Positions 35,349-56,389 of a stretch of DNA of 64,000 nt are shown here, one piece after another. Positions within the stretch are counted from its first letter, which is position 1, and each line of letters opens with the position of its first letter. Made by a program: the position numbers and the translations under genes. The notes below the pieces were generated by a model, which saw nothing but the letters and a program-made list of their open reading frames with translations, ran no database searches and was not told the origin of the DNA. This DNA comes from Xestospongia bergquistia. Taxonomy: Eukaryota > Porifera > Demospongiae > Haplosclerida > Petrosiidae. The stretch covers positions 5,784,380-5,848,379 of the forward strand of contig OZ014424.1 in the NCBI GenBank assembly GCA_963965975.1. Direction: 5' to 3'.

Positions 35349-35412
35349 AAATCGACATGTGGTCAATGTTTGTGTGGCTTAATTCCACGTGGTTAAGAGA
35401 ATACTAAAGTAT

Positions 35413-35473
35413 ACGGAAACACTCTGAAATTTCTACACAAAATTAAAGCGGGAATATATAATCAGTTCCGTAT
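35413..35473 (+). promoter_or_regulatory. Shared 61-base divergent-promoter element, copy A (LARS2/NDC1)
   Basis: It runs from ACGGAAAC to TTCCGTAT. It shares CTGAAATTT, a GGGAATA block and the flanking GTATAC...GTATACTAC with two other promoters in this window, with identical end-to-end length. It lies 64 bases from the LARS2 start codon and 46 bases from the NDC1 start codon. The ends form an inverted repeat (AGTATACGGAA/TTCCGTATACT). Confidence 0.75.
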
Positions 35474-35519
35474 ACTACAGATAAAGTACACGTTTGGCTC
35501 CCTCTCTCCATCTGTTATA

Positions 35520-38028
35520 ATGCAATGGTTTACATATGTGGTAAGTGTTCAGCATATATTTATAAAACAGCAACTGTTTAGGTTTATCCATGGAGAACTG
35601 CTGCTAGTACTGTATGGCTTATAATATTGACCACACCTATTTTATTTGTCTATCAACTTATTTACGTGAGTTAAAATGATGTTGTATTACTTTTTAATAT
35701 ATTATAATTTAGTGTAATTTGTTATGGTGGACTAAAGAATGGGTGGAGTCACTGGTCATGTTAGCATACATTATATTTTATTATCTCTCTCTAATTTTCC
35801 TTCATATAAGTCACTCATGGTCACTAACAGGTATGATGTCATAATGATGTCTTATGATGTCATTTGTAACAGTTAAACCAGTCATTGGAAAAACTCGATT
35901 GGAAAAATTATGGAACATTATTAAACCAAACCATTTCTTTATCATATGCTTCTATGTTGCTATGGCAACCACACAAGCTATGTGTTTAATGACTTTTAGT
36001 GGATCAACACAACATCAGTAAGTTACTGTAGCTACCATTTTTGCTATGGTTACTGTTAATAAAGCATTAGGTTACCAGTTATGACTCAAGGAGCTTTTCT
36101 TGTAAGCCACACACTCTTACTAGTCAATATTATTCTCATATTTAACAGGGTTTGCTATACAGTCTACGATATTTTAAAAACAATGATTATGTGCTTTTAT
36201 TTCCTACACTTCAAGTAATTATTACATTAATATATACAAGAATTGTTTATCTTTATAGCAAAGGAAACTATTTAGAATTAAAGCACATTTTGTTCAGTTG
36301 CTGAAAAGGGCTCTTCTCTTTTATTTTAAGGCAATATAGACTATATATATTACTATAAATATTGGATTATTATAGGACATTACTGTTATTATACCAATAT
36401 GTTTTCTATTAAGTAAGTTGAACGTATTAAAAAGCAAATATATTACATGTTATTAGATTGGTGGTCATCAGGTCTTGTAACTTCTATCAAAATGTTCTTT
36501 GATATTTGGTTACTTTTGCAAATGATATTAAGTGGTATTACCTTATATATCACTTGGTATGTGAGTATTAAATTATTCAGAGTCTTTCATTCTGAGGTAA
36601 ACTCAACAGTTGTGAACAATAACTGACTACATTTCTATTAGGCCATTAGGTTTCTAGTTATTGCCTCTTTTACAGAGGAATCACCTCGTGTATTATCTAA
36701 TGCATTAAAATCTGATAATTTGTTACTTAAAGTATAGTAATATTATAATTATACCTCAAATATATCTATATGATGTATAGTACCTAGGATTTTTAGATTT
36801 AGCAGATATATCTCTGAATTCTCCAGCAAGGAGACGTCAGGTAGACATTTATAACTCAGTCATTTTAATGTTATCTTTTTGTTAAGATATTTGGTTTAAG
36901 TTCACAAGGTCAACCTGCTACATGGGACACTATTCACTTACAATGTATACAAGTAATACAAAGTTTTATTAAACAATTAGGAGGACAAGTACTTGAACAG
37001 ACACCTTCCTTCCCTCCAATAACAGGTAAGATCCTATCATTAATGATTTAATAAAGATCTAACTAAATAGAACAGCGTTCTAAACTGACAACAAACAAAG
37101 GATGGTATTATCCTGATCAAGTAACTCAATCTGTCATTACAAGAAGACAGATTGTAAACAAGAGAGCTTGTTTATCATACAGTAAGTATGTGTTATAAAT
37201 CTTTGTTGTATAATTCTTTCACAGGTGGTACACAAGATGTGGCCCCTCCTCATCATGAGGACCAGTGGAAGCAAGTTAGAGAAGCCATTATAACTTTAAA
37301 GAAAGTACCAAAAGCCCTTGCTGTCTATTTGAAAAAGAAAGCAATCTTCTCATTCTTCTTAAAAGAAGTATAAACAATATCGTAACCACACCCCTTCACT
37401 AATTCTTAATACTAGTTACCAGAGGCAACTCACGATACAACATATTGTCAGACCCCTCTTTATCTATGGGCAATAACTGGTATGGATTGCAATGTATGTA
37501 TATGTGTTATATTAAGTTCCTATAATAGCTTTATGTCAGTTATCATCTAAATCATATTATGAAGATAAATATGGTGTAGTTCAAAGAGTAAGTAACTTTA
37601 TAATATATCTTGTTAAATTGTTTTATTGTTCAGACATTGCCCAACACTCTCAATACATTACTACAGTTGTCACTGGTAAGAACAATATTTTGACCACACC
37701 CCCTTAAAAAGAATTAGTTATTGGAGAAACAAGTACGACAACCTTTTGGCTCTGCCCACTTTGATGACAACAGATTAGTGTTGCTACTGAGGAATGGTAA
37801 ATATGCTTTGAAAACAGGTACATGTGTCATAATTATCACAGCCGCTGATAACTGTATCTTCCTAGCTGTTAATGAAGGCCTGCAACTGTTATCTCAAACA
37901 TTCCATCATGAAACCAGGTACATTGTTAAGTAATATATCATGTATGTGTCTGTAGATTTCTACAGTTAACAAATGATAATATACAGCAATGGAATAAGCT
38001 CCACCCCCACCCAATAATGACAATATAA
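35520..38028 (+). CDS. NDC1: Nucleoporin NDC1 (TMEM48)
   Basis: A polytopic nuclear-envelope nucleoporin needed for pore assembly. About 17 short exons. The first half has several hydrophobic helices (VWLIILTTPILFVYQLIYV; MLAYIIFYYLSLIFLHI; IIPICFLL). The middle contains YLGFLDLADISLNSPARRRQ and then IFGLSSQGQPATWDTI, which line up with the conserved 'YLALQDL..S..SPSRRQ.VFSLSQPGGHP--W' block of NDC1. The cytoplasmic C-terminal half ends near QPFGSAHFDDNRLVLLLRN. The first exon is only seven codons (MQWFTYV). The stop is 23 bases from the convergent CDT1 stop. Confidence 0.88.
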
Positions 38029-38051
38029 AAAGTGATATGACTTGTGTAATA

Positions 38052-39782
38052 TTATAAAACACTTAATTCTTTTGTTCTCTTCTCTAATTTTTGGTTAATT
38101 GTCTTCAAATTTATACCTTTATTCTTAATTTTTAAGTATTCCACTTTACGAACGCTAACTTTCATGATCCATTCTGGAATTATATCCAACAAACAATGGA
38201 TATGTTCACTGACTTGATCTAAAAACCACACCCATTAATTATATTCATACTACCACAATAACATACCTGTAGTTAATGAGGAGGAGTGACTATCAGATAC
38301 TTTTTTGAAGACATCCTCTAAAGGAATAGCTGCTTTTCCTTCAGTCACAAATAATCTTTAGTTAATAAAGTAAATATTATTGATTATAAGAGATACAACT
38401 TACGATCGTAATATACGACACATTTCTGGTAATCTCGACATCATCTTTATTTTTTTCTCATTTGCTGGATTTCTTGTCATTTCAAGTTTCGCACGAATGG
38501 CTTCTTTCTGACGTACCTAAAATTTTATAATAATAATTAAAAGATAATTAAAGGGGCTTACTTTTTCTATAATAGCTGATGATACTCCTTTTAATGGAGA
38601 CACTGGGGGTTGACTAAGTTGACTCTCTGGTTTACTATCAGTTTCCTTAGCAACTGTTGCCAAGGCAACCTGAACTCTGGCAGATAATTTGTTCTGAGTA
38701 ACTTCCAATACATCTTTTGCTGTTGTATAACTCTCTAATTAGGGGTGTGGCAATAGCCTAGGCCATAACAAATAACTTACCTTTGATTGGTGGACGTGGC
38801 AATTCTCCCTCTACAACATCAGGGACACTATCTAATAAAAATGCCGGATGCCAGCGATATAACTTGTCCCTAGGTATTGTAATAGGTGGATTGAGACTGG
38901 ATAAAAAGTCCTATCAAATGCAATAAGAAAATTAATATTGACCCTCCCCACTCATTACTTCATGATGTTTAACAGCAATATCCAGCAACTTGTTGTGAAA
39001 TATATTCTTTCTTTTAATTAGAGAATTCTCTGTCTCTTCAATATTAGTTTCCACAGTTAGTTGATAGCTGTTATATTTAGATCGATCCATAGTACCAGGG
39101 ACATGAGTCTCCTGACGATAGATAAATGCCTTAGGATAAACAGTCTTCATTTGAGCTAAATGTTTAACTTCAAAGTTCCTATATAAATATTAGGTAGTGT
39201 AGAAAGTATGAGGGACTTACTTGCGTGTCATTTCTTGTACTGCTTGTTTTAATTTATCGAAAGTACAAATTTCTTGACGTTTGACAAACATACCAGAGAC
39301 CACATCAACACATCTAAACTTTTCCTCAAGTATTCGATATTCATAAGGTAATGGCAAGTCTTTTTGAGGTACTTGAGGAAGAGCTAAAGCATTTAGCCGT
39401 TTATATGCTGGAACTTTTTTTGTGCTTTCATTATCTGACAAAGAACTTCTACATGATGCAGAGTCAGGTGCCACCAACTCATCATATTTTAGACGACGAC
39501 TATATGTATGAAAGTCACATGACAGATCACATGATTATACACTTACTTTGATTTTTTTGGACTAGTAAATTCGATTGATTTAAATTTTTCAAGTCGTGGT
39601 GACTCCTTGGATGGAGTAGTCACTGTTTCTTCCCTACACTTTATCTTACAATCCCCACTTGTACTAGGAGGTGTGTCATCAAGATCACTATCACTTATTT
39701 TTCTTCGTTTTGATGGAATATTTTCATCATTACCTGCTCTTTTACGAACTGTAAAATATCTTTTCATTTGAGTCTGCGCCAT
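38052..39782 (-). CDS. CDT1: DNA replication factor CDT1
   Basis: A replication licensing factor that loads MCM2-7. The N-terminus MAQTQMKRYFTVRKR contains a PIP box (Q-x-x-M-x-x-Y-F) followed by basic residues, the arrangement used by CDT1 for PCNA-coupled destruction via CRL4-Cdt2. A disordered basic segment follows (PSKRRKISDSDLDDTPPSTS). The geminin-binding winged-helix region reads PLPYEYRILEEKFRCVDVVS then KRQEICTFDKLKQAVQ and KTVYPKAFIYRQE. The C-terminal MCM-binding winged helix reads MSRLPEMCRILRSLFVTEGK. Seven or so exons. A consensus E2F site lies about 60 bases upstream. Confidence 0.92.
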
Positions 39783-39843
39783 CTAGAAAAAACAAATGAT
39801 AGTACGTTAACATCCCCTAACTTACTGAAACACCTTTTCACAC

Positions 39844-39855
39844 TTTTCCCGCGCC
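39844..39855 (-). promoter_or_regulatory. E2F-type site in the CDT1/macroH2A promoter
   Basis: TTTTCCCGCGCC fits the consensus TTTSSCGC extended form. It lies 62 bases from the CDT1 start codon, in a 305-base divergent spacer. CDT1 is a known E2F target in other animals; here the site is by motif only. Confidence 0.55.
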
Positions 39856-40087
39856 TACGTAAATTAACCCTTTGGCAACTAGCTGCTAGATCTAATTAAC
39901 AACATCACGAGTTTGGGTGGGCGTGCCTTTCTTTATTTGTGAAGACAGATTGTTTGGTAAGTAAACACATATCATAATACATTGATCAACTGTAATCTAA
40001 ACTAATTTGTAATGTAAAAGCTCTAAATATAGTACGTTGACAATTACAGTGCACAAATTATTGTCCTATAGAAATCACGTGATCAAT

Positions 40088-41158
40088 ATGAGTGGCCGTG
40101 CAGGGGTACAACGTAAGAAACGTTTAAGTCGTTCTGCTAAAGCAGGTATTGTTTTTCCAATAACACGTGTTCAACGATACTTAAAGCAAACCTTAAAACG
40201 AAGGATCCAATATGGTGCACCAATTTATCTTAGTGCTGTATTGGAATACCTCTGTGCTGAGATCCTTGAATTGGCTGGTAATGCTGCTAGAGACAACAAG
40301 AAACGTATTGTAACCCCACGACATATATTACTGGCTATTGCTAATGACACAGAACTGCATCAATTGACAAAGGGTGTGACCATTAGTCAGGGTGGAGTCC
40401 TACCTAATATTCATGAGGTTTTAATTAGCAATAAAAAGAAAAAAGTTGGATCAACAAAGGCTATAGTAAGTCCTCAGCCTCCACCCAAAAAGGCAGTTCC
40501 TCGTCCTAAGCCCAAAAAAGCAATTCGTTCCACACCAAAAAAGGGCAGAGGACGACCACCCCTCTCTGCTGGTTCCCATGCTACATCCAAAACTAGTGGA
40601 TTTATTACATTGAGTGAAAAGCTTCTTAATGGTGGTCAAAAACTAACTGTATTTCAAGGTGATCTTGCTAAAATTACATGTGATGCTGTAGTCCATCCAA
40701 CTAATTCGTCTCTCTCTCTGTCCGGTCAATGTGGCAGTGCTCTAAGTCGAGCTGGAGGGCCATCATTTCGTTCTGAAGTCAACAAAGTCTCTAATAGTAT
40801 TTCCATTGCTGTAGCGGAGGCTGTTGTTAGTGGAAGTGGTGCACTACCATGTCGTTGTGTTATACATGTACACAGTCCTTCGTGGAATGACACTGATGCT
40901 CTCCCTAACTTAGAAAAATCTGTTCAGTCTTGTCTTGATATTGCTGAGAAAGAAAAGCTTTCAACTGTGGCATTTCCATCTATTGCCAGTGGCTCTAATA
41001 ACTTTCCAAAACAGACATCGGCTCAAACTATTCTTCGTTGTATTCGTGATTATTATTCTGCAGCTACTGCCTGCACTGTCAAAGAAATTTATTTTGTTCT
41101 TTATGATATGGAAAGTATTGGCATTTACACATCAGAACTTGCTCGACTAGATCTGTAA
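40088..41158 (+). CDS. Core histone macro-H2A
   Basis: One uninterrupted coding exon of 356 codons (human about 370). Residues 1-120 are an H2A fold: [52 protein letters not shown] and [19 protein letters not shown] basic Pro/Lys linker follows (residues about 125-190, [20 protein letters not shown]). The macro domain occupies the rest: [31 protein letters not shown], and ending [17 protein letters not shown]. The start MSGRAG was preferred over the longer frame from 40,037 because it is the H2A start. A probable 5' UTR intron runs from about 39,957 to 40,049 (GTAAGT...TTACAG). It marks repressed chromatin in other animals. Confidence 0.93.
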
Positions 41159-41246
41159 ACTAGTTTTGTGATAATATATCATTTTTTAACCCATATTTAA
41201 ATTTTTAGCAATATCCTTTTATTTTAGATATTATAGTTTGTTGTTA

Positions 41247-42859
41247 TTATGTTGTTAGAGGTTTAAAATGATGGTAATTAAGAGATTGTTTAGTGAGTTG
41301 TTGCCACGTCTGTTGATATGTACATAGTGTCATCTAAGAAGACAATATTATTGTATATAAATTTTGTATATAACTCTTACTTCAGCTATCTCCACTTTTC
41401 TTTGCCAAATGTGTAATGTTTTAGTCAATTCATATTGACTAGCTCTTTCCTGTACATATTCCATGATCTATATTATAATGTAATATTTAGCAGTTGGACT
41501 AAACACTTACATCAGGGACGCGATAATCCTCAAGTTGACTTCGCATAATTTTGTTAACTTCCTCAGCTTTCTCTTTCTCCTAATAATAATATTAATAATT
41601 ACATGTATTATATGTTAATTTACTTTGATAACACTAGTTGTCTCTGCTTCAACTTTCTCTAACAAATCTTGATGTAGTTTCATATCATTATCTAACGACT
41701 TTGAGTTTGACGTTAAACTTTGAACTTTCTGTTTGTATGAATTGAGTACTTGCATTGTATTACCAGAAGATAATTTTAATTCAAGTAATTCTTTGTTTTT
41801 TTCTTCAACTTTTTCATGAAGTTGTTTGTTTTCAATTTTTAACTGTTCAAAATCAACTTCATGTCGAACTTCACCACTTTCCTCTTTCTAAATGGGAACT
41901 AATTATTAATTTAATTAAAGGGGCAAGCCACACCTGTTTTAATTGAGTCACAAGTTTTTGCCTTTTAACACGCATTGTTGAATTTTTCAGCCTCAATTTC
42001 TCCATCAAATTATCCTAGAAATAAATAATATATTATAAATGATAGTAATGACTTACTCGAGATCGGACATAATCTTCAAAATATTTTATTACTTTTTCTC
42101 CTAATAATTTTCCAGTTCTCTGTAAACAGTTACATAATGTGTGACTATAATAAGTGGGTGTGACTTACTGTGTTAACAGCACCACGAAGAATGTCACGTT
42201 CAAATTCATAACGTGCTTTATTTAATTCAGTCAATTTATGTTCAGACTCTGTTATCATAGCCTAAATAATAATTTATTAATTAAATTATTTAGTATAGGG
42301 GTATTACCTTGTGATTGTCAAGAACCCTTTGTCTTTCCTCCTTTTTTTTAGCCATTTCTTCTCTCAGTTCATCTAACTCTCTAGTAGCTATATCACATTT
42401 TTGTTCGACACTCAAGCGAAGTAGTCTGTATTAGAAATAATTTATTTACATTATTTATTGGATATATAGACCTCTCTGGAGTTGAGCCTAGTTTTTGTCG
42501 AGTCTTCTTCCGTTGACCAGTACGTCCGTCCATTTGTGTTGAGGAAACACCAGGTACTAAATAATGTAGTAATATTATATATTATAACTTATACTAACTT
42601 GTTTTGATTTGAGTATCTTTTGGATCCAACCTTTTGAGAAACTTTTCAAACATATCTACTTCTTTTTGTAATCCCTTACAAGCTTGTCTAAATATAACAT
42701 AATGTAATGTCTACAATGAAAAACTTACTCTGCCTGTTCAATCAATTGCTTTATTGCTTCATCTTCCATTTCTACTAACATCTCTGGAGGGACTGGATTG
42801 GAACTCTCACTGACAAGAGAGCCAGATGCTTCACTTATGGTCCTAGATAAACTCGCCAT
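41247..42859 (-). CDS. CCDC113: Coiled-coil domain-containing protein 113 (ciliary)
   Basis: Ten or so exons encode an almost entirely coiled-coil protein. N-terminal ACKGLQKEVDMFEKFLKRLD PKD and C-terminal blocks EYVQERASQYELTKTLHIWQ then RKVEIAEMTLCTYQQTWQ correspond to CCDC113/CFAP263 (compare 'TEMFEKYYAKLEPRD' and 'RMWERKVEIAEMSLKGHRKAW'). CCDC113 is a satellite and axonemal component required for cilia. The last exon is separated by an intron near 41,340-41,395. Its promoter has an X-box-like motif. The related CCDC96 shares the C-terminal domain; the N-terminal MFEKFLKRLDPKD favours CCDC113. Confidence 0.82.
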
Positions 42860-42874
42860 TGTTATTTAGGAACG

Positions 42875-42888
42875 GTAACCATGACAAC
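42875..42888 (-). promoter_or_regulatory. Candidate RFX X-box upstream of CCDC113
   Basis: GTAACCATGACAAC matches GTNRCC-NN-RGYAAC with one mismatch. It lies 15-29 bases upstream of the start codon. It is preceded by ACG, as is the GGTAACC near the TSNAXIP1 start. Assigned by motif only. Confidence 0.4.
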
Positions 42889-42982
42889 AGTAGTTTTCTA
42901 TTTAATGGGCAGCCGGCAACGTGGTATGTACGTGCTGTTGTGTTATCATTGAAGCAGTTGTATCTTCTTCAATCTCTTTAAA

Positions 42983-43541
42983 ATGAAGCTTGTGAGGTAC
43001 TTTATTATTAATACATACATTGTCAATATTCTATAGTTAATTATCAATAGATTATTTGTATACTATATCATTGTTTTATTGGTACCTAGATTTCTCATGA
43101 AATTAAATCATGAGACAGTAACCATTGAACTCAAAAATGGAACTGTAGTACATGGAACCATTGTTGGTAAGTTGTACTACTAGTTAATAGGGTGGGGCAT
43201 TTGTCCTGTTAATTTATTAGGGGTTGATATGAGTATGAATACGCATCTGAAATCAGTGAAGATGACCATAAAAGGACGTGATCCTATAGCGCTAGATACA
43301 TTAAGTTTACGAGGCAATAACATTCGTTATTACATTCTACCTGAGAGTATACCCCTGGATACACTACTAATTGATGATACACCCAGAAGAAAAGCCAAGA
43401 AGAAGGAAGGTAATAATTATGTAATACCACACCCACTTAATTAATATTCATTTTGTAGTTGCATTAGGTCGTGGACGTGGTAGAGGAAGAGGTAGAGGAC
43501 GTGGCAGAGGGCGGGGTGGACCCAGAGGGGGTAGACGTTAA
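42983..43541 (+). CDS. SNRPD1: Small nuclear ribonucleoprotein Sm D1
   Basis: A core spliceosomal Sm protein. Four exons. [20 protein letters not shown] (Sm1 motif) continues [20 protein letters not shown], then the Sm2 motif [20 protein letters not shown]. The C-terminal tail is an uninterrupted GR/RG repeat ([12 protein letters not shown]...GGPRGGRR), the usual substrate of arginine methylation that binds SMN. Nearly identical in layout to human SmD1, with the first exon coding only five residues. It shares a 123-base divergent spacer with CCDC113. Confidence 0.96.
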
Positions 43542-43591
43542 TTATTATTGTAATGTGTTATTAATTCCAAAACTATGTAGTTATTAAAAAG

Positions 43592-46500
43592 TTATCTTTT
43601 TCCTGAAACATTTTGACAAACATGTTCTGAGAGCATACGAACACGTTTCATAGCTCTAAATAATTGAGCAGACCCTTCATTACGTTGTTGTAAATAGTCC
43701 ACAGTCTAATTATAAGATTTAATTGATATCTAAATACTTAACCACACCCACCTTAGTTATTTCAGCAGATAACGGACGCATTATTGTAGGGAGATGAGCA
43801 GCTGTTACACCATCAGTAGGATCAAGAGATAAAATGGCATGTTCCAAATACCTGTAATTATAATATTAATTACAATAAATTAAAAGTAATTAAGGGTACC
43901 TTATCTTCAGTTCAATGTTATCAGATAAATCTACTGCTATTTGTTGTATAAGAGATAACAACACAGGTTGAGAGAGTTGACACGATGTGTTAGCATCAAA
44001 CACTTCCTCTGGACTGATATTTTGACACACAAATGTCACCAGTTGTAAATCAGATGTTGATAATGCTAAATTAAAGGCAGTATCAAATTGTTTATCTTCT
44101 AAAAGTTGAAGAATACGCTCCTAAAGATCAAATAATCATATTATTAAATTCAATAAATAAATTACTTGATGAGGTTTAACTGAAAACTGAGAAGCAGCTG
44201 TTGTTGCTGGTATTAGTTTCTCTTCAATTAATGTCTCCATTTCGTGTTTAACAGCTGCAGAAATAACCTGTTTTAATGACTCGCCTAACCTGTATAGCCA
44301 TTACAATAACTACATATATAGTTTGTATGTACTGACTTTAATGACATTATTTCTTGTTGGATACAGCTTTGAATTGATGGCAAGAGAGGAGAATTAGGTG
44401 ATGCCAAAGATGCCATCCAAGTATTTAAAGATGTTGTTAACTGATGAATGGCTGGATCTAATGTCTGTCTTTGTTGCTCATGAAGTTGATCTAAATCTGA
44501 TCAGATGACATGATCACATGATCATCACATGATTTATCTCACATTCAGTTGTTCCTCTTCTAAATGCTTCATCTAATTGACGGAACATTTGCTGACATGA
44601 TCTTTCAAATGAGGGCAATATAGTTGTTTTAAATAAGGTTTCCATGGTTACTGGGATAACCTGTTGCAAGAATCCAACAACACAATTACCGATACTTTGT
44701 ACCAATCCCTAACATAAAATGGATGCATAGCAAATAAATGGATGCACATTATACCTCAGTATGAAGTATTTGTTGTAATCCATCACGTACTGCAGTATCA
44801 GTTACTCTAAGATGATCAGATACTGCTCCAGATATTTGATCTTGAGTGGCCGTCAGTGATTTCTGTAAAGCTATTATAACTAAATAAAGTGTTATATAAT
44901 AGACATATTTACTTGGTACAAGAACATTTTTAGTCTCTGTTTTAACAGCTTTTTCCAATCTACCAGCAATACTATTTTGAATTGATTGACTGACACTTTG
45001 ATTTAGACGATCATTTCTTTTACTCTCAGCATTTTTAATAAATCTCTCAATCCGTTGATCTAATTATATGATAATGATTAGAAGATGACTCATTATGACA
45101 TCATACTTTGTTCACGTAACATTTCTTGTATACCACTAGTATTTTGAGCAGTTACTGTTGTGATTGTATTCTCCATATGACTCTGTAACTGCTCGAATAA
45201 TGCCTTTTGTTGACAACTAAAGATACTATATAATTACAGATAGCAATAGAGACATTAATCTACCTTATAGCCTCAATATCTTGCTGTTGTTTAGCAACCT
45301 GTTCAACTAACTGATGAAGTAAAGTGATATCTACTGGCTCAACATGATCTGCCGAGGGTTGTACCTCTCTCTCTTCTACAAATGCTAATGCATTTGCCAT
45401 AGCTCTTGCAACAACAGCACTCGCTTGTTCTCTTGTTGTGTCCTCAGGAGGAGAGACAATTGATGGTAATGACTTAGGAGTCTCAAGTAATGGCCATTCT
45501 TCCTCTACTGGACTCTTACTCAAAATATCAGGCCTAGTATTAGATTCATTCTCGTTCCAAGATAGCTTAGCTGTAGACACATTCTCAGGAATAGTATTAG
45601 ACTCAAGCTCATTCCTAGTCCAAGGTGCTATTACAATAGACTCATCCTCATTCCCAGATTCTATAACTTTGGACTCAGTCTCAATAGGTTGTACTATTGC
45701 AGATTGTGACTCATTATCAAGTGGTACAATGCTAGACTCAGGCTCAGACTCATTCCCAGGTTGTACAATTATAGACTCGGACTCATTCCAGTGTGTTGTA
45801 GACTCAGACTCAATCAATGAGTCCTCAGATATTCCATTAAGAGCAGATGGGAATGTTATGGAGAGATCATGTTGTCCTGTTGTGGGTGTGGTTGCAGTTG
45901 GAGTTACGACAATTTCCTCTTGTGGCTCTCCCTTATCTGATGACAATCTTTGCAATGGTATCGCCACTAACAACCCACTTTCACCATCTCCACCCTCACT
46001 AGATGATGTCATCACCAAATGATTATTGGCCACATTAATGGAGTGGGAATCAGTCTCAGACTGGGTCACAGTCTTTAGCAGAGGAAGGCTAAGATTTGGT
46101 AAGGACTGAGAACCAAAATCACTAGGAGAACATAGCACAGGCCCTCCAGTAAGAGGTGAAGAGAGAGCTGAAGGATAACTAGTAAGACTACTAGGAGAAC
46201 TTTTAAGAAATGAATCTGGTGACAGCAATTTTACTGCAGGAGATGACTGGCCTGGACCATAAGGGGTGTGTCCAGCAGGTGGGGTTACAGATTCTAATTC
46301 TACTACACCACTAGTGACATAATCAGCAGGTGGATTCATTGATTGAGGTGACGACAGGGTATCCCCTTCACTAGTTGGAGGTTGACCTTCTGATTCATCT
46401 TCTAATGGAGGCATATCATCAAGTGGCGGAATTCCTGTTAGATCAGGAGGTTCAAAGGTCACTGACAATTCTTGCATGGACCTAAGACAATAAAAATAAT

Positions 46501-48358
46501 TTATTTATATTAAAATGTCAACAATTACTTAAGACAAGATATGTACCATATCATTTTAAACATCAATGTTGTCTATACATACTTGGATTGTATACAATGT
46601 AGCTTTAACAGGACTACATTACGACGAGGGTTAAACTTATCTCCTCCCACTTCTCCTTCTTCTTCTTCTTCTCCTGTACTATCTCCTCCCTCTTCAGGTA
46701 AAGCAGTATGACCAGATAATACAAAACTTAAAATATGTTGTGTTAACAAATATTCCGTTATTGAAGAGATAGAGGCATCTCCAATACCAGCTTCTTGATG
46801 AACTGGCATAACATACAGTACCTGTTATAATAAAATGTAGCATTACCACCTACACAGTTAATTAGCTTACCTCACGTTCTGAATCGGTAGCTAAAAGATA
46901 GGATGCTGATAGATCAAGTGATAAAAGCATTTTAGGAATAACTTGATCATTAGGTGAGGGTAAGAACCTAGTAATTACAAAGATAGAAAATTTTTGTTAT
47001 TGTAGGACTGACTGTATTGTTTGAAGACATTTCCATTTAACAGTACACCAAATTTTCAAAACAGAGTTATTTTGAGCAGCAGTTATTAAAAAACGCCAAA
47101 ACTGAGTACTAAAAACAATATTTATAATATAAAAATTATTAATTAACATGTACTTGGGGTCTTGAGTGAGATGATTGTCAAGAAATAACAGTCTTGTTAC
47201 TGGTAGTCCATTGTGAGGAAGGTAGTCATGAAGACATCTAACAAGTAATTAGTATTATACTAGCTTTCTTAATTATTGCAACTAACTTAGGGTCTTCCTC
47301 TTTTTGATCCATATTTAATTTCCAAAACTTAACATGTCCATCATCTCCAGCAGTAGCTAATACATTACCATCAGGAGACAAAGAAAGATCAGTAATAGAC
47401 TATTGCAGTGAGATATAAACAGTTAATAAGAAAAGATAAACTTACTCCTTGATGAGCTGATAATATAGATGTTGTTCCTTTTTCTATTTTACTAAATTCA
47501 AGTGGAATACCAGGAGAATATCTTGTAGCAATTTCTGGCAAGTCAAATATCTCAACCTTTAACAGTTACAATGGATAAAGAAGTTTTAGTTGGCAAAATG
47601 AACAGACATACCTTATCTTCATGAGAGACAGCTAGAATTAAATTCTCTTCAAGATCTTCATCATCAGATTGTGGCACATAGGGACACCACACTAAACGAT
47701 GAGTTAAATTATCAACAGTTGGACCATGATAAATATGTAATCTCAGACAATTACTAAATAAAATACAATAAATAGAATTATTATTATTATAGTAACTTCC
47801 TTACCTTATCTTCGATACATCTCCATGTGCGCTATCAAGGTCATAGACATGTACATTACCTCCTTCATCAATAGCAGCTAACATGTTAGAGTCAGAATGA
47901 GCGAATGCTATATCAACTACTCCACCCACAAATTTCTTCAACAACGTACGATCTTTTGTTTTTTGTTGAATAATTCGTACAACATGTCCAGTGCGACTCT
48001 CCAATACATATGCCAGATACTGATTATTACTGGCTATTATGTTGCCATGGAAACTTTTAGGTTCCCAGTTCTGATTGGTAATAGTTGACACACGAACCTA
48101 TTATATTAATTATAGAAGTGACATCACTATGACATCATACCTTTCTACTAGCTTCAGCACCATTCAGTAATTGGTCACTTGCATGTATATTAACATCAAA
48201 TCCATGTAATGATACAGGAACATCGTTACCTCGTAGAATACTATAAGAAATACAATTAATTAATGAATGTGATATTTTAGAGCTCACACTTGTTGTGGTG
48301 GAGTAGGCACTAAAAGCTCAAGACCTGGATGTTGTTCTTGTTGTTCTTGTTCATTCAT
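43592..48358 (-). CDS. EDC4: Enhancer of mRNA-decapping protein 4
   Basis: A scaffold of the decapping complex in P-bodies. The N-terminal WD40 propeller: NWEPKSFHGNIIASNNQYLA, TKDRTLLKKFVGGVVDIAFA and DEGGNVHVYDLD match EDC4 strongly, with further blades in later exons. A long Ser/Pro/Thr/Glu-rich linker is coded by one big exon (45,260-46,477), rich in ESES and NESE repeats. The C-terminal coiled-coil and helical domain begins LLHQLVEQVAKQQQDIEAI and ends RMLSEHVCQNVSGKR. It starts MNEQEQQEQHPGLELLVPTP. The promoter has copy B of the 61-base element and is shared with MRPL4. A 194-codon antisense ORF over the linker is a codon-bias artefact. Confidence 0.92.
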
Positions 48359-48431
48359 TATTGCTGAGAAAGTGAAGGAGGCTGAGTTAGTTATAACAAA
48401 GACACGTGGTCAACTTAGTTTTCGGACGTAA

Positions 48432-48492
48432 ACGGAAACATTCTGAAATTTGTTAGCAAATGTAATGGGGAAATAAAAATCCTATTCCGTAT
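48432..48492 (+). promoter_or_regulatory. Shared 61-base divergent-promoter element, copy B (EDC4/MRPL4)
   Basis: It runs from ACGGAAAC, through ATTCTGAAATTTGT and GGGGAAATA, to TTCCGTAT. It is the same length and orientation as copies A and C. It lies 73 bases from the EDC4 start codon and 28 bases from the MRPL4 start codon. CACGTGGT lies upstream, as also near copy A. Confidence 0.75.
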
Positions 48493-48520
48493 GTTAAGAA
48501 AACGTGTAACGTTATAAATT

Positions 48521-49252
48521 ATGTGTACCAAGCTGATCAGATCCCTATTCTTGCCGAAGAGAGGATATTCTAGTCAACCTTTAGTGCTATCATGTACAGA
48601 TCATGTAATTAGAACTCCTTTAGAAGCCTGGGTACTGAATCTAACTACTGGCAATAAATTAGGAATCATTGCATTAAATGAAAGGATTTTTGGTACATCT
48701 CTCCGTCTTGATATTCTTCAGAGGGTTGTTGTATGGCAATTGGCAAAGAAACGAGCAGGAACAGCAAAAGTTAAAGATCGTAGTGAAGTAAGAGGTGGAG
48801 GTCGTAAACCATGGCCTCAAAAAGGATTTGGGCGTGCAAGACAGGGATCTATCAGGGCTCCACACTGGCGAGGAGGGGGTGTGGTCCATGGTCCAAGAGG
48901 TCCTGTCTCTTACAACTACACTCTACCTAAAAAAGTCCGGAGTCTTGGATTACGTTCTGCATTGTCTTTGAAATATGGACAAGGAGATTTACATATTGTA
49001 GACTCTTTGTCTTTAGATAATCACAAAACCAAACATTTATTAAACATTCTTAATACAAACAATTGGAAGTCAGTCCTGTTTGTTGATGGAGGAAATACTG
49101 TTGATTCAAATATTGCATTGGCCAGTCAAAACCTTCCTGAAGTCGATGTTCTGCCAAGTATTGGTCTAAATGTTTACAATATATTACAACGACAAACATT
49201 AGTGTTATCTCTTGGGGCAGTACATCTGTTGGAAGAGCGTTTAGACTCATAA
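48521..49252 (+). CDS. MRPL4: Large ribosomal subunit protein uL4, mitochondrial
   Basis: A single exon of 243 codons. The N-terminus MCTKLIRSLFLPKRGYSSQP looks like a mitochondrial presequence. The uL4 core follows: GTSLRLDILQRVVVWQLAKK, AGTAKVKDRSEVRGGGRKPW, PQKGFGRARQGSIRAPHWRG and GGVVHGPRGPVSYNYTLPKK. These are the bacterial L4 rRNA-binding signatures. The absence of introns is unusual beside neighbours with many exons and matches macroH2A; it may reflect an old retrocopy or intron loss. It is convergent with CK2 alpha, with 98 bases between the stops. Confidence 0.94.
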   Translation: MCTKLIRSLFLPKRGYSSQPLVLSCTDHVIRTPLEAWVLNLTTGNKLGIIALNERIFGTSLRLDILQRVVVWQLAKKRAGTAKVKDRSEVRGGGRKPWPQKGFGRARQGSIRAPHWRGGGVVHGPRGPVSYNYTLPKKVRSLGLRSALSLKYGQGDLHIVDSLSLDNHKTKHLLNILNTNNWKSVLFVDGGNTVDSNIALASQNLPEVDVLPSIGLNVYNILQRQTLVLSLGAVHLLEERLDS

Positions 49253-49350
49253 ATGTATTAATATTTCTAATTAATGTACATTATAAATAATCGCAGTGAA
49301 TCAGACAAACATATAAAGAAAATGAGTTTACTGATGACATCAATATGATG

Positions 49351-51523
<2,173 letters not shown>

Positions 51524-51801
51524 ATTTGATTTTTAGTCCAAAAACTATATCAAGTAACAGAATAGATGACAGAACAATGACCACACCCACTTGTAATACA
51601 CACATGATCTTACTACTGTTACTATCAATATTACATGTTATACAATTTAATAGCAATTGTACGTACTTACCAGATTATATAACAGTTTGGCTCTCTCGTC
51701 AACTGAAGGACTTAGCAACTTCCTTCAGTGCGTTGGAGTTAACCCCTACAATAGAAATATTTAAAACTAACGCTTAATTAGAATATAGATTTCATACCAA
51801 A

Positions 51802-53517
51802 ATGGCGACTCCTGGAAAGGTACAAGAAGCAGAGAAGCACATAGCTGAGGCTGAGAAGAGGTGAGTCAGTTAATTAGACATTATGTTAAAATATTTTATA
51901 TTTAGTTTGAAAACTGGTTTACTAAAATGGTCACCTGACTACGATACTGCAGCAAATCGTTATGATAAAGCAGGTATGAGTATCTGTGGCCATTTAATAT
52001 AATATAACATATTTTAGCTGTGTGCTACCGAAATGCTCGATTACATGACAAAGCGAAAGATGCTTATCTCAAAGCTGCTAATGCTTATTACAATAATAGA
52101 GCGTATCCTCCTCCCACTCATATAATTAATTTTTGATAATACAATAATATTATTGTCCTTAACATTGTTCAGTATCTACCATTCTGCAAAGTATGTAGCA
52201 TTAAATACATGATAATATTTAACCCTTAATTTATAGGAGTTTGGAACAAGCTGCTCATGTTTGTAGGGTAAGTTATTACCATAGTTATGACATCATTATT
52301 ATTCTAATAATTAGGATGCAAAAAAGTTAAGCGATGCAGCTGATCTTCTTCATCAAGCTTGGTAAGTGTTGCTACAGTTTTCCCTAATTAGTGTCCACTA
52401 GTGATCGTTATAATGAGAGTGGACATCCTGATACTGCTGGACAAGTGCTATTAAAAGCAGGACAGTAAGTTAATTATTGTAATTATTTTTTGAAGCTCCA
52501 CCTACTTTTATTAGATTATTACAACATGAAGACCCAGAAAAAGCTGCAAAATATTATTTAATGTCTTCAGAATATTATTTACTTGACGACAAATACAGAG
52601 AAGGTGCTAATATTACTAAAGATGCTGTGAGAATGTACTGTAGAACAAGACCACGACAGTATGCCTTAACAAGTGGGTGTGACCAAATATTTTATGTTTT
52701 ATTAGGCTAGAGAAGATTGTAGAGACTAGTCAACATTCTCGTGTAGTGTGTCTTAATGCTAAAATGGTCAATATTGCTCATGAAGTAACTAAGTTATTTC
52801 AATAATTCATTATTATTGCATTGACTAGACCATAGCAGTTGAAATTATAGCATTGCTACATCAAAAAAAGACAATGCAAGCTAGAGAAGTACTTCAAGAA
52901 GCTGAAAGGTACTTTATTTCCAAGCAATTGTTTTATTTTTCTTTATGTAGTGTTCCAGACTTTGCTGCCTCAGATGACTATGCAGTATTAGATTCTTTGA
53001 TAGATGCAGTTACTTCCAATGATGAAGATGGTATTAAACAGGCTTGTTCAAGTGGAGTATTCAGAGCTATGGACCCTGAGGTAACGTCATTTAATTATAA
53101 TAGTATGATAATAAGTTCCTATTATAATAGTTTGCAAAACTTGTACATGATCTTCAAACAGGACAAGAATCTGTTGCTCCTCCTACCACTAGTGCCCCTA
53201 AGACAAAGTCATCTGAAGGCAGTAATTCTGTTGCCATGGAAATAAAACCTCTGGCTAAACAAGATCCAGCAGTATTAGCAGATATGAGAAGTCAGTTGTT
53301 AGGATCAAGTAAAAATGATAAAACAACTTCAAAGACTAAAAAGAAACAAGTTGTTGAAAGTTCACCTTGTGCCACACCCCCACCTGAACCACCAAGTGAA
53401 AAGCAACCAGTTGATGAGATAAGTAATGAGAAGGAAGATACAAGAAAAGATGAGGTAGAAGTAGAGATAACTAAAGATGATTCAGAGGATGAAGATGACC
53501 CCATTGATATAAATTAA
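51802..53517 (+). CDS. NAPG: Gamma-soluble NSF attachment protein
   Basis: A SNAP-family adaptor that recruits NSF to SNARE complexes. Ten or so exons. MATPGKVQEAEKHIAEAEK, then LKTGLLKWSPDYDTAANRYD (the gamma-SNAP-type N-terminus), YHSAKSLEQAAHVC, YNESGHPDTAGQVLLKAGQL, and C-terminal SVPDFAASDDYAVLDSLIDA. It follows gamma-SNAP (GHPDTA..L..AG) rather than alpha-SNAP. The C-terminal exon adds about 90 Lys/Glu/Asp-rich residues (KTKKKQVVESS... EITKDDSEDEDDPIDIN), longer and more acidic than the human tail. It shares a 278-base divergent spacer with CK2 alpha. Confidence 0.88.
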
Positions 53518-53560
53518 CAAAATGTAAAAACCCATTAAAAATGTCCTTTTTTAAAATCAT

Positions 53561-55137
53561 TTAATTATCATCATGTTCTTCACGTAATCCCTTGCTATGT
53601 CTGGATTTACCAGCTATTTCTAATATAGCTTGAGCTTCTTTATCTTTATCTAATATACTAGTCACTTGATCCTATTATAAAGTTATTAATATTAACAGAG
53701 TAAAATTAAAGGGGCTACCTCATCATCATCATCATCATCATCTGGGAGGTGTGGTCTTCCAATTCCCCAAGCTTCTAAAACATCAATTTCAAATTCCTCT
53801 GTTGAAGACAAGCATGGACTTCCAAATGTACTACATTTTGGACGGGCTCTACTATGACCACGCCCATATTCTGCTGACAACCATAAACCAAAGTAGTTCA
53901 ACTGTCCACCCATACCCTAATTAACAGTCATAAGACAGTCATGTAATTGTCATGTGACTTACTAAGCCATTAGGTAATGTTTGAGCTGACTGTTGTAAGT
54001 ACATGTAATTATCATTATAACCAGTTGGTATATAGACACCAAAGGAAGGTCTTAATGTGAACAGAAATGATGTGCCACAACCTGAATAATAAAATTAATA
54101 ATAATTACTAATTAATTAATAAGGGGTCACCTTGAAATTGAGGGTGGAATTTCCAACTGTTACCAGCAAATCCTCCAAATACATAACCCTGTTTATCACG
54201 TACTACAATTAATGTAGGACCTCTATTCAATATTTGACGGCATAATGTAGAGAAACTTTCTCCATGTAACTGACTAGAGAATAATGGGTAAACCATACCC
54301 CTTACATCATAAGGAAATACACTATTTAAAAACATAATGGCGACTTGATCAAGGAGTAGAGAAACAAATGTTTCTTTGACTAAAGGATGGATTATTTTGG
54401 ATGGCAAAAGTAACGTCTCAGAGTCTGACAGTCCATCAAAATCTTCAACTTTTGTAGAAGGAATTAAAAAACATAATGTAAAAACGGATTGGAAAATACA
54501 ATTAGCAAGGGGTGTGGTCATTAGCCAAGACTCGATATCATGAATTGTGAGGTAATGCTGACTACTATCAGATTCTGTTAAGTGTTTTAAAGACTCAGTT
54601 AGATAACTCACTAAGATACTAAGTGAATCTGGACCAGTTGGCCATTCATGTAATTGAGGTAATTGGATAGAGCTTTGTTTAGACATCAACAATACCTTCA
54701 AATAGTTCTCTATGGTCACATCTAGTCCTTGTACTAATGAAGGCTCACCCAATATACTCATAATAACTTGAGCACGTTTCTCAGCGCTACCTTTAGCAAT
54801 CCAACTCACATTCTCAATAAAACTAGGATACGTAACTTGACAAAGGGACAGAGTTGACTTGCCATCATGTTGACGAGAGACAGATAATGCTATAAAGAGC
54901 TTTTGTACATTAATTCCTGACACGCCCACTTTTTGGAGATAAGCCTATGTTATAAATAATACTAAGTTATAAACTCTGTCTTCAATCTCTTACTTGTAAC
55001 TGCTGTTCATTGAAATGTTCTGTTTCTTGACTGTTTGTAATTGCTTCAAAACTGTCGTTAATAAATATCTTTTCTTGAGAACTTAATAACGTCCCATATT
55101 TCTCCAATAAAGAAGACTTACTAGCTTTACCTCCCAT
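53561..55137 (-). CDS. MEAK7: MTOR-associated protein MEAK7 (TLD domain)
   Basis: Starts MGGKASKSSLLEKYGTLLSS, a good N-myristoylation sequence as in human MEAK7 (MGN...). A middle helical region sits in one large exon. The TLD domain reads LFSSQLHGESFSTLCRQILN, RDKQGYVFGGFAGNSWKFHP, FLFTLRPSFGVYIPTGYNDN then YMYLQQSAQTLPNGLGMGGQ, continuing LNYFGLWLSAEYGRGHSRAR. The C-terminus DKEAQAILEIAGKSRHSKGL matches the family ending. MEAK7 acts at lysosomes in an alternative mTOR pathway in mammals. An Asp-rich stretch (PDDDDDDDE) is local. It has copy C of the 61-base element in its promoter. Confidence 0.92.
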
Positions 55138-55174
55138 AGCTAAATTTATGAGGCAGCATAGAATACGGAGGCTT

Positions 55175-55235
55175 ACGGAAACATTCTGAAATTTGTATAA
55201 CAATTCAATACTGGAAATAATAATTAACTCCGTAT
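55175..55235 (+). promoter_or_regulatory. Shared 61-base divergent-promoter element, copy C (MEAK7/IMPA1)
   Basis: It runs from ACGGAAAC, through ATTCTGAAATTTGT and TGGAAATAA, to CTCCGTAT, with flank ACTAC as in copy A. It lies 37 bases from the MEAK7 start codon and only 16 bases from the IMPA1 start codon, so 5' UTRs must be very short or overlap the element. A second TACGGAGG lies just upstream (55,164-55,171). Confidence 0.75.
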
Positions 55236-55251
55236 ACTACAATTAATAATC

Positions 55252-56389
55252 ATGACAGACGTACAGGGCTATTATGACACTGCTGTTACTGTTGCTAAAC
55301 AAGCCGGTCAAGTTAGTTATTTAACATTTAAACAGTAATATTGCTGTATTATAGATAGTTCTGGAGGCACTACAAAATGTAGACAGTCATAGTATTACTA
55401 CTAAAGGAGGTTGTTCAGCAGATATGGTCACAGAAACAGATACTAAAGTAGAGCAATTCATTATTAACTCTATTAAAAAGGTTTATCCTAATCATCAGTA
55501 AGTTCTTAATATGTAATAACTCCACCCATCATTAATTGAAGGTTTATTGGAGAGGAAACGTCATTATCAACAGATTTTACAGACGCTCCTACATGGATAA
55601 TTGATCCAATTGATGGAACAACTAATTTTATTCATAGGTACTATAATTATGTTTAAATGTAATACAAGTTATGTCTATTAGATTTCCCTATTCAGCCATA
55701 TGTATTGGATTAACTATTAATAAAGAGGTACTGTACATTTACATTTAACATATGAATGATGTCATTATTATCTCAGGTTGTTGTGGGTGTTATTTATAAC
55801 TTCTTTCAAGATCAATTGTTTTCTGCTAAGAAAGGGGGTGGAGCTTATATGAATGATCGATCAATTCATGTATCTGATATTAGAGGTAACACCAGTTGAC
55901 CACACCTTTTAATTAACTTTAACAGAACTGCAGAAGGCAATTATAGTAACTGATCTGGGATATTCTCGTAAAGAATTTGAACTTACTCCAAAGCTAGCAA
56001 CAATTCAAGGACTGGCAGCTGATCCTAGCCATGTTCATGGGTAAGCCTACTAATAAAATAACTGCATTTAATAATACAGAGACTACAGCATTCGTACATT
56101 AGGTTCTTCAGCTCTTAGTTTGTGCATGGTTGCTGTGGGTGGAGCAGATGCTTATATTGAATATGGTATTCATTGCTGGGATTATGCAGCAGGAGAACTC
56201 CTTGTCAGAGAAGCTGGTGGAGTTTCTCTCTATCCAACAGGTAAAGTAAATATCTTTCACTATTTATGAAAATTTATTATAGGAGCTCCCCTTGATCTGA
56301 TGGGACGTGGTGTGCTAGTCTCTTGTACTAAGGAACTAGCAGATGCCATGATTCCTTTAATACATCATGTGGATTATCCTAGAGATTAA
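55252..56389 (+). CDS. IMPA1: Inositol monophosphatase
   Basis: A Li-sensitive, Mg-dependent phosphatase that recycles inositol. About nine exons. It starts [20 protein letters not shown]. Metal-binding motifs: FIGEETSL (motif around Glu), [15 protein letters not shown], and [15 protein letters not shown]. The middle reads [20 protein letters not shown] then [13 protein letters not shown]. It ends [20 protein letters not shown]. The order and spacing match human IMPA1. A stretch of the intron at about 55,884-55,926 recurs at 56,506-56,545 downstream, a leftover duplication. Confidence 0.95.

What the first reader, a model, noticed from the sequence alone, without database searches (positions are those of the whole stretch)
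35413..55235. A rigid 61-base element shared by three divergent promoters
The spacers of LARS2/NDC1 (35,413-35,473), EDC4/MRPL4 (48,432-48,492) and MEAK7/IMPA1 (55,175-55,235) hold the same element. ACGGAAAC-A-TCTGAAATTT opens it, a GG-AATA block lies in the middle, and TCCGTAT closes it. All three are exactly 61 bases despite unrelated filler, and all point the same way relative to the minus-strand gene on the left. The ends form an inverted pair (ACGGAA/TTCCGT) that resembles ETS-type GGAA sites. Fixed spacing with diverged filler argues for a functional promoter module with protein-protein geometry, although domesticated copies of a short inverted-repeat element could look the same. I do not know if this has been described.
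Basis: seen in the sequence. Interest (0 to 1): 0.85.

Follow-up and report, generated by a model that had tools for sequence, protein, structure and literature searches.

The report
Shared two-way promoter module
Three short stretches between back-to-back genes are copies of one roughly 80-letter promoter design whose core recurs about a hundred times unchanged, and some three hundred times with small changes, in what looks like a sponge genome, often between housekeeping-type genes near chromosome ends.

Summary
In detail: three copies at 35413, 48432 and 55175, far above chance. It is much bigger than the window. The core occurs 101 times exactly in the genome (reversed-pattern control 0) and 346 times at up to 3 mismatches (control 52). 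The copies that I read share one compound module: an outer inverted pair of about 10 bp (AGTATACGGA ... TCCGTATACT), an asymmetric block of about 50 bp between the arms, an AT-rich spacer, and in about half of them a CACGTG box just outside. The fixed 61-base length is not a rule: the closing arm lies at 42-70 bases, mainly in three classes (about 53, 61, 69). Copies tend to lie between divergent genes; in 11 of 14 Pfam-supported ORFs the first in-frame ATG is 8-60 bp outside an arm. An older transposon origin stays open. Copies are concentrated near chromosome ends more than two control gene families. I read it as a bidirectional core-promoter module; the binding factor is unknown. No description of it turned up in the paper listings that I saw.

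The parts
35386..35391 (.). CACGTG (G-box) just outside the left arm of copy 1
   Evidence: Sequence; CACGTG is enriched at -60..-14 of the core, 30 of 95 copies
35398..35407 (+). Left arm of copy 1, degenerate (AGAATACTAA against AGTATACGGA)
   Evidence: Position -15..-6 of the family profile
35413..35432 (+). Core ACGGAAACACTCTGAAATTT, copy 1 (LARS2-like gene on the left, putative NDC1 on the right)
35433..35449 (+). Middle block (family GTAYAGAAATGNAATGG), diverged in copy 1
   Evidence: Profile columns +20..+36
35467..35476 (+). Closing arm TCCGTATACT, copy 1
48358..48358 (-). First base of the likely EDC4 start codon
   Evidence: Frame MNEQEQQEQ... in window:48287-48409:-; downstream exons match Ge1_WD40
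48403..48408 (.). CACGTG (G-box) left of copy 2
   Evidence: Sequence; enrichment
48417..48426 (+). Left arm AGTTTTCGGA, copy 2
48432..48451 (+). Core ACGGAAACATTCTGAAATTT, copy 2 (EDC4/MRPL4)
48452..48468 (+). Middle block, copy 2
48486..48495 (+). Closing arm TCCGTATGTT, copy 2 (TCCGTAT intact; over the 1-mismatch limit that I used for TCCGTATAC)
48521..49252 (+). MRPL4, single open frame starting 25 bp after the closing arm
   Evidence: PF00573, E=1.1e-67; start
55137..55137 (-). First base of the likely MEAK7 start codon (ATGGGAGGTAAAGC), 22 bp from the left arm
   Evidence: Sequence; TLDc exon window:54111-54944:-. The link from this ATG to that exon is my reading
55160..55169 (+). Left arm AGAATACGGA, copy 3
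55175..55194 (+). Core ACGGAAACATTCTGAAATTT, copy 3 (MEAK7/IMPA1)
55195..55211 (+). Middle block, copy 3
55229..55238 (+). Closing arm TCCGTATACT, copy 3; the likely IMPA1 start codon is at 55252
   Evidence: exons at 55355-55498 (23.8 bits, under the Pfam cut-off of 27) and 56075-56266 match Inositol_P

Best explanation
It is a compound, two-sided core-promoter module of about 75-90 bp used by a large set of gene pairs, many of housekeeping type. Each outer arm reads TCCGTATACT towards its own gene, usually a short way upstream of that gene's start codon, so each arm probably lies at or next to a transcription start. Between the arms, next to the left one, is an asymmetric block (ACGGAMGTRWACGGAAACRTTCTGAAATTTGTAYAGAAATGNAATGG). 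It probably binds one large sequence-specific factor or a fixed factor pair that recruits polymerase to both sides. The AT spacer sets the distance to the closing arm, mainly in three classes. An outside CACGTG box probably adds a bHLH-type factor. Shown: sequence anatomy, copy number, mostly divergent gene context, G-box association, start-codon distances, no clear target-site duplications. Inferred: transcription starts, the factors, and that the module drives both genes.
For: Copy number: 101 exact cores, control 0; 346 at up to 3 mismatches, control 52. Independent anchors recover it. From the middle block alone, 19 of 19 exact hits are copies (6 in the core list, 13 of 13 others read, one of these, L107, with a much changed core), and 18 of the 27 one-mismatch hits that I chose to read out of 81 listed. 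In 27 non-redundant copies found only that way 26 have the closing arm (1 of 187 control stretches) and 18 have CACGTG nearby. From the left block, 45 hits, control 0, 26 of them in my exact or variant core lists. Gene context: coding potential is divergent on both sides in 32 of 53 loci; within 600 bp 28 ORFs are divergent and 6 the other way. Pfam families beside copies include CwfJ, ALG11, Rad51, MRPL4, MRPS30, CSTF1, POP1, TIP49, ADPGK and tubulin; no enrichment test was made. First in-frame ATG of 14 Pfam-supported ORFs: 8-60 bp from the closing arm in 8 of 9 right-hand cases, 16-32 bp from the left arm in 3 of 5 left-hand cases. G-box: CACGTG at 6.9 per kb at -60..-14 against 0.05-0.14 per kb in the far flanks; 48 of 95 copies against 3.9% of control stretches. 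Conservation falls to near background outside the arms and in the spacer.
Against: There are no transcript, CAGE or chromatin data, so promoter activity is inferred. Not every copy lies between divergent genes: at L002 a helicase gene ends 13 bp from the module and at L003 a gene runs towards it; 21 of 53 loci did not show the divergent pattern on both sides. Copies in a tandem array on C3 have no recognised protein beside them. No related species could be compared, so conservation at orthologous promoters is untested. The exact-core set is chosen by its core, so core conservation in it is circular; only the other-anchor sets avoid this. The codon score was trained on long ORFs of the same loci and window.
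Confidence: 0.8

Rival explanations
1. Co-opted mobile element: an ancient short inverted-repeat transposon (MITE) with AGTATACGGA/TCCGTATACT ends spread through promoters and its copies were kept because a host factor binds them. Today it acts as a promoter; by origin it is transposon-derived.
For: Conservation stops at a 10-bp inverted repeat. A small set (L051, L087, L088, C9:2195061, C2:4583872, C2:4586091) shares sequence up to about 35 bp beyond the closing arm at dispersed, partly interior places. Related copies exceed shuffles: mean column information 0.0301 against 0.0279 +/- 0.0004 and most similar pair 0.92 against 0.83 +/- 0.03. Flank matches of 5 or more bases: 3 of 89 against 1.3 +/- 1.1. 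Precedents: C. elegans CERP2/CELE2 promoters (PMC9757741) and the placozoan Mutator TIR motif (PMC12221973).
Against: No overall target-site duplication signal: mean flank match 1.20 against 1.25 +/- 0.13 for shuffled pairs, 89 copies. Strongly non-uniform divergence with a near-random spacer. G-boxes lie outside the arms within a narrow range. Apart from the set above and gene duplicates, flank matches are few and not at the module's edge. No transposase profile was searched.
Confidence: 0.3
2. One reading: one rigid 61-base protein geometry.
For: All three window copies are 61; 59-64 is the main class, 73 of 115.
Against: 18 of 115 are exactly 61; classes at 52-54 (18) and 68-70 (12) exist; 11 of 13 copies at 67 or more carry a TTAATTA-like stretch in the spacer against 8 of 76 in the middle class.
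Confidence: 0.03
3. The copies are remnants of segmental or gene duplication, not a module of its own.
For: True for a few: the C12 339-363 kb cluster, L080/L145, L138/L146, L107/L123, L087/L088 and C9 copies 21066 bp apart.
Against: Flanks of 140 places compared (9 of them hits without the module; most 401-base loci give under 200 bp a side): outside those groups and L051 with L087/L088 there are L012/L031 (101 bp), L038/L044 (95 bp) and several matches of 23-54 bp, none continuing from the module's edge in register. Neighbouring genes belong to different families.
Confidence: 0.03
4. A small RNA gene or other transcribed unit rather than a promoter.
For: Length and a conserved inner block would fit.
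Against: No Rfam family reached its cut-off in the window; arms lie a short way from start codons on both sides.
Confidence: 0.03

Closest known systems
C. elegans m1m2 motif pair / CERP2 and CELE2 MITE-derived germline promoters bound by HIM-17 (PMC9757741; abstract and passages seen)
   Same: A multi-part motif with preferred spacing and orientation, in hundreds of promoters, linked to an inverted-repeat element; motif more conserved than its surroundings.
   Different: Here many of the genes look like housekeeping genes, no clear target-site duplications were seen, and the module is longer (about 80 bp) with arms close to the start codons of both genes. Factor unknown.
Placozoan promoter-hub motif in Mutator terminal inverted repeats (PMC12221973; one section and passages seen)
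   Same: An early-branching animal, housekeeping promoters, a shared motif resembling a transposon end.
   Different: The motif sequence is not in the text I saw, so similarity was not tested. Looping cannot be tested here. No Mutator element was sought.
G-box (CACGTG) of Amphimedon bidirectional promoters (PMC4773876; abstract, results section 5, legends and tables seen)
   Same: [quoted passage not shown] here CACGTG flanks 48 of 95 copies.
   Different: The ETS motif is reported as infrequent there and four motifs are called unknown; the strings CGGAA and TTCCG do not occur in its text. Logos and supplements were not readable.
ETS/GABP sites of vertebrate bidirectional promoters (recalled; search listing only)
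   Same: GGAA cores in divergent housekeeping promoters.
   Different: Long fixed context (ACGGAAACRTTCTGAAATTT) and inverted arms are, as far as I recall, not part of that class. Binding untested.

Membership tests
Bidirectional core-promoter element | Located between closely spaced divergent genes | tested here: met
   As a tendency: divergent coding potential on both sides in 32 of 53; 28 against 6 ORFs within 600 bp; exceptions such as L002 and L003
Bidirectional core-promoter element | Overlaps or abuts transcription starts of both genes | tested here: inconclusive
   Only start codons could be used: 11 of 14 Pfam-supported ones lie 8-60 bp outside an arm
Bidirectional core-promoter element | Drives transcription both ways | not testable with these tools
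   Needs reporter or 5' RNA data
MITE (miniature inverted-repeat transposable element) | Terminal inverted repeats at the boundary of homology | tested here: met
   AGTATACGGA/TCCGTATACT, with conservation falling to near background just outside
MITE (miniature inverted-repeat transposable element) | Target-site duplications | tested here: not met
   Mean 1.20 against 1.25 +/- 0.13, 89 copies; matches of 5 or more 3 against 1.3 +/- 1.1
MITE (miniature inverted-repeat transposable element) | Divergence spread over the whole copy | tested here: not met
   Closing arm and inner blocks conserved, spacer near background; inner-block agreement also high in copies found by another anchor
MITE (miniature inverted-repeat transposable element) | Transposase partner sharing the ends | not tested
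   The stretch between L087 and L088 could not be fetched
ETS/GABP site | Bound by an ETS factor | not testable with these tools
   Only the GGAA core resembles it

The most novel reading that the evidence does not exclude
A nearly complete two-way promoter of about 80 bp, possibly first spread as an inverted-repeat element, runs some hundreds of largely housekeeping gene pairs in an early-branching animal. One large factor reads it with stepwise spacing (about 53, 61, 69), and intact copies persist mainly within 1 Mb of chromosome ends, so promoter type and chromosome position are coupled.
Probability: 0.25. Interest if true: 0.87.

Novelty: new variant of a known kind. Interest (0 to 1): 0.72.

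Why it matters
Animal housekeeping promoters are usually thought of as loose collections of short motifs (recalled). Here one long, ordered module with arms facing both genes recurs some hundreds of times in what looks like a sponge. It is a clean test case for how a promoter fires both ways, for whether such designs are assembled site by site or copied, and for why they concentrate near chromosome ends. It gives an exact searchable sequence for finding the factor.

Tried and rejected
Strict 61-base rigidity: rejected. Length classes as sequence subfamilies: no column is clearly associated with class (highest z 2.25 among 70 columns). Helical 10.5-bp phasing: the class step is nearer 8-9 than 10.5, so I do not claim it. 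Target-site duplications: no clear signal. Copies elsewhere: 0 in viral contigs; 2 bacterial MAG contigs hold the 20-mer but I see no arms or middle block beside it, so I treat them as chance. Sequence strings in papers: 1,355 papers hold at least one of four short strings; none of the 40 listed is on sponge promoters by its title. The listings (6 of 6; 20 of 158; 20 of 70; 10 of 16; 8 of 8) brought no paper that I could see to describe the module; only three papers were opened. L107/L123/L124 first looked like dispersed transposon copies; L124 proved to lie in a 4.2-kb tandem array and L107/L123 to be near-duplicates of each other, so I dropped them as proof of transposition. Long start-codon distances kept in the count: L009 (112 bp), L022 (241) and MEAK7 (398); for the last two I think that the ORF used starts after an intron. 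For L010 and copy 48432 the closing arm failed my 1-mismatch limit and its edge was set by default. Rows dropped: 5 near-duplicates before the 95-copy profile; 9 of the 40 middle-block hits read, which hold no module (L120, L121, L122, L125, L126, L129, L132, L133, L137), and 4 more as near-duplicates, leaving 27. One exact core, C15:5317320, was seen only as a place and not read.
Full report
Observation. The window is C14:5784380-5848379 of a 146.5-Mb genome in 21 contigs, C14 being 5,860,811 bases, so it lies about 12 kb from that contig's end. GC is 33%. Species was not determined. MRPL4 has a 93% relative of no given name; animals named among the 120 hits listed are Halichondria panicea (64%), Oscarella lobularis (57%) and Trichoplax (65%), which fits a sponge.

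Family size. The core occurs 101 times exactly with 0 in the reversed control, and 346 against 52 at up to 3 mismatches, an excess of about 290. A close variant, ACGGAAAYRTTYTAAAATTT, occurs 33 times with control 0. Two searches that do not use the whole core find the same thing. The middle block with up to 1 mismatch gives 105 against 20; all 19 exact hits are copies, and so are 18 of the 27 one-mismatch hits that I chose to read out of 81 listed. The left block, which ends in ACGGAAAC, gives 45 against 0: 21 carry the exact core and 5 the variant. Of the other 19, two had been read (L139, L142) and are copies, and five lie at places that came up as similar DNA; the rest were not read.

Anatomy. 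In 95 non-redundant copies conservation begins at about -14 and ends at the T of TCCGTATACT. Order: AGTWTACGGA (left arm), a second CGGA 10 bases on inside ACGGAAACRTTCTGAAATTT, GTAYAGAAATGNAATGG, an A-rich stretch, a spacer near background composition, and CTCCGTATACT. The closing arm with at most 1 mismatch to TCCGTATAC is present in 94 of 100 copies read, exact in 74, and in 26 of 27 copies found by the middle block only, against 1 of 187 control stretches. Window copy 48432 is among the six misses, since its arm reads TCCGTATGT. The left arm is less uniform: exact ACGGA at the usual place (-10) in 64 of 122 copies, at -11 to -14 in 9, not found in 49.

Spacing. From core start to the end of TCCGTAT: 52-54 (18), 59-64 (73), 68-70 (12), others 12, of 115; none above 70 although the search ran to about 106. 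The pattern departs from a smoothed null at every tested period from 6.5 to 12.5, strongest near 8.5, so no single period is proved. Copies at 67 or more have a TTAATTA-like stretch in the spacer in 11 of 13 cases, against 8 of 76 and 0 of 24 in the shorter classes. Length class is not clearly associated with other columns, which speaks against simple subfamilies and for recurring constraint, though the long class is small.

Gene context. With a codon score trained on 44 long ORFs, the right flank is better on + in 37 of 53 loci, the left flank on - in 43, both in 32. Of ORFs scoring above 8 within 600 bp, 28 are divergent and 6 are not. Pfam was run on 30 ORFs chosen mainly by coding score and nearness, 22 with a family at E 0.001, one of these under its curated cut-off; not all are adjacent divergent genes. 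About half of the families point to RNA processing, translation, glycosylation or DNA repair; the rest are mixed (ankyrin, kinase, PH and others), and no enrichment test was made. Start codons of Pfam-supported ORFs are close to the arms in 11 of 14. In the window the likely MEAK7 and IMPA1 starts are 115 bp apart and the module covers 79 of those (sequence). Read outwards, ATGGC is found within 160 bp in 28 (right) and 31 (left) of 95 copies, GCCAT in 16 and 7.

G-box. CACGTG lies at -60..-14 of the core in 30 of 95 copies, mostly 10-40 bp left of it, and 14 boxes lie 0-20 bp right of the closing arm; 48 of 95 copies have one in -100..+170 against 3.9% of control stretches. Of 36 places of TTCCACGTGGG in the genome, 8 lie within 150 bp of a copy. 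That pattern was chosen after seeing G-boxes beside copies.

Transposon question. For: the inverted repeat marks the boundary, a few dispersed copies share up to about 35 bp more, and copies are slightly more alike than shuffled columns allow (column information 0.0301 against 0.0279 +/- 0.0004). Against: no overall target-site duplication signal, non-uniform divergence, little flank homology beyond gene duplicates. Part of the outer flank of L087 is repeated on C1 without the module, so repeats near single copies need not belong to it. I conclude that it most likely works as a promoter now; its origin is open.

Chromosome ends. 87 of 101 exact cores lie within 1 Mb of a contig end (20.5% expected if uniform), and none on the 28-Mb contig C1 (places). 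The 33 variant cores and the 45 left-block hits also show none on C1. The middle block has 13 one-mismatch hits there; the three that I read are not copies. Genes are also concentrated towards ends: 32 of 60 merged carrier and DEAD-box places lie within 1 Mb, against 71 of 83 merged core places (Fisher p = 3e-5). I took 40 carrier and 31 DEAD-box places by hand from 109 and 36 exon matches. The left block gives 39 of 45. G-box places without the module give 12 of 25. So the bias exceeds that of these controls, but two gene families are a thin yardstick.

Known work. The listings that I saw gave no description of this module. Amphimedon promoters are reported to have G-boxes enriched in bidirectional promoters and four unknown motifs (PMC4773876; abstract, results section 5, legends and tables); whether one of those is part of this module cannot be told without the logos. 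Closest systems in kind are MITE-derived C. elegans promoters (PMC9757741, abstract and passages) and the placozoan Mutator-TIR motif (PMC12221973, one section and passages).

Noticed in passing
whole genome; places: Module copies are more concentrated near contig ends than two control gene families, and no exact or variant core is on the largest contig C1, whose first 120 bases at least read N.
   Followed up: partly
C12:339238-363004 (L064-L070): Seven copies within 24 kb on one strand, six of them with similar flanks: probably a tandem gene cluster with its promoter.
   Followed up: partly
C9:7377904, 7398970, 7420036 and C2:27204-45943: Variant copies 21066 bp apart on C9, and four on C2 near the contig end; L138 (C9) and L146 (C2) share flanks: an amplified unit near chromosome ends that carries the module.
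   Followed up: partly
C14:5026269 (+) and C14:5029901 (-), L087/L088: Two identical 401-bp stretches in inverted orientation 3.6 kb apart, each with the module: transposon-like ends or an inverted duplication.
   Followed up: partly
L081 and L083: A second, slightly degenerate core follows directly after the first module, in tandem.
   Followed up: no
window:30540-30599: CACGTG, then two ACGGAA sites and ATGGC without the rest of the module: possibly a simpler promoter of the same vocabulary.
   Followed up: no
L147 (C3:7144400-7154200): Tandem array of units of about 4.2 kb that carry a degenerate module (CAAAAACATTCTAAAATTTT); no Pfam match in the six ORFs tried.
   Followed up: partly
L051 (C10:5997300-5997700), bases 6-79: A separate dispersed repeat, with matches on several contigs, lies beside the module of L051.
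   Followed up: no
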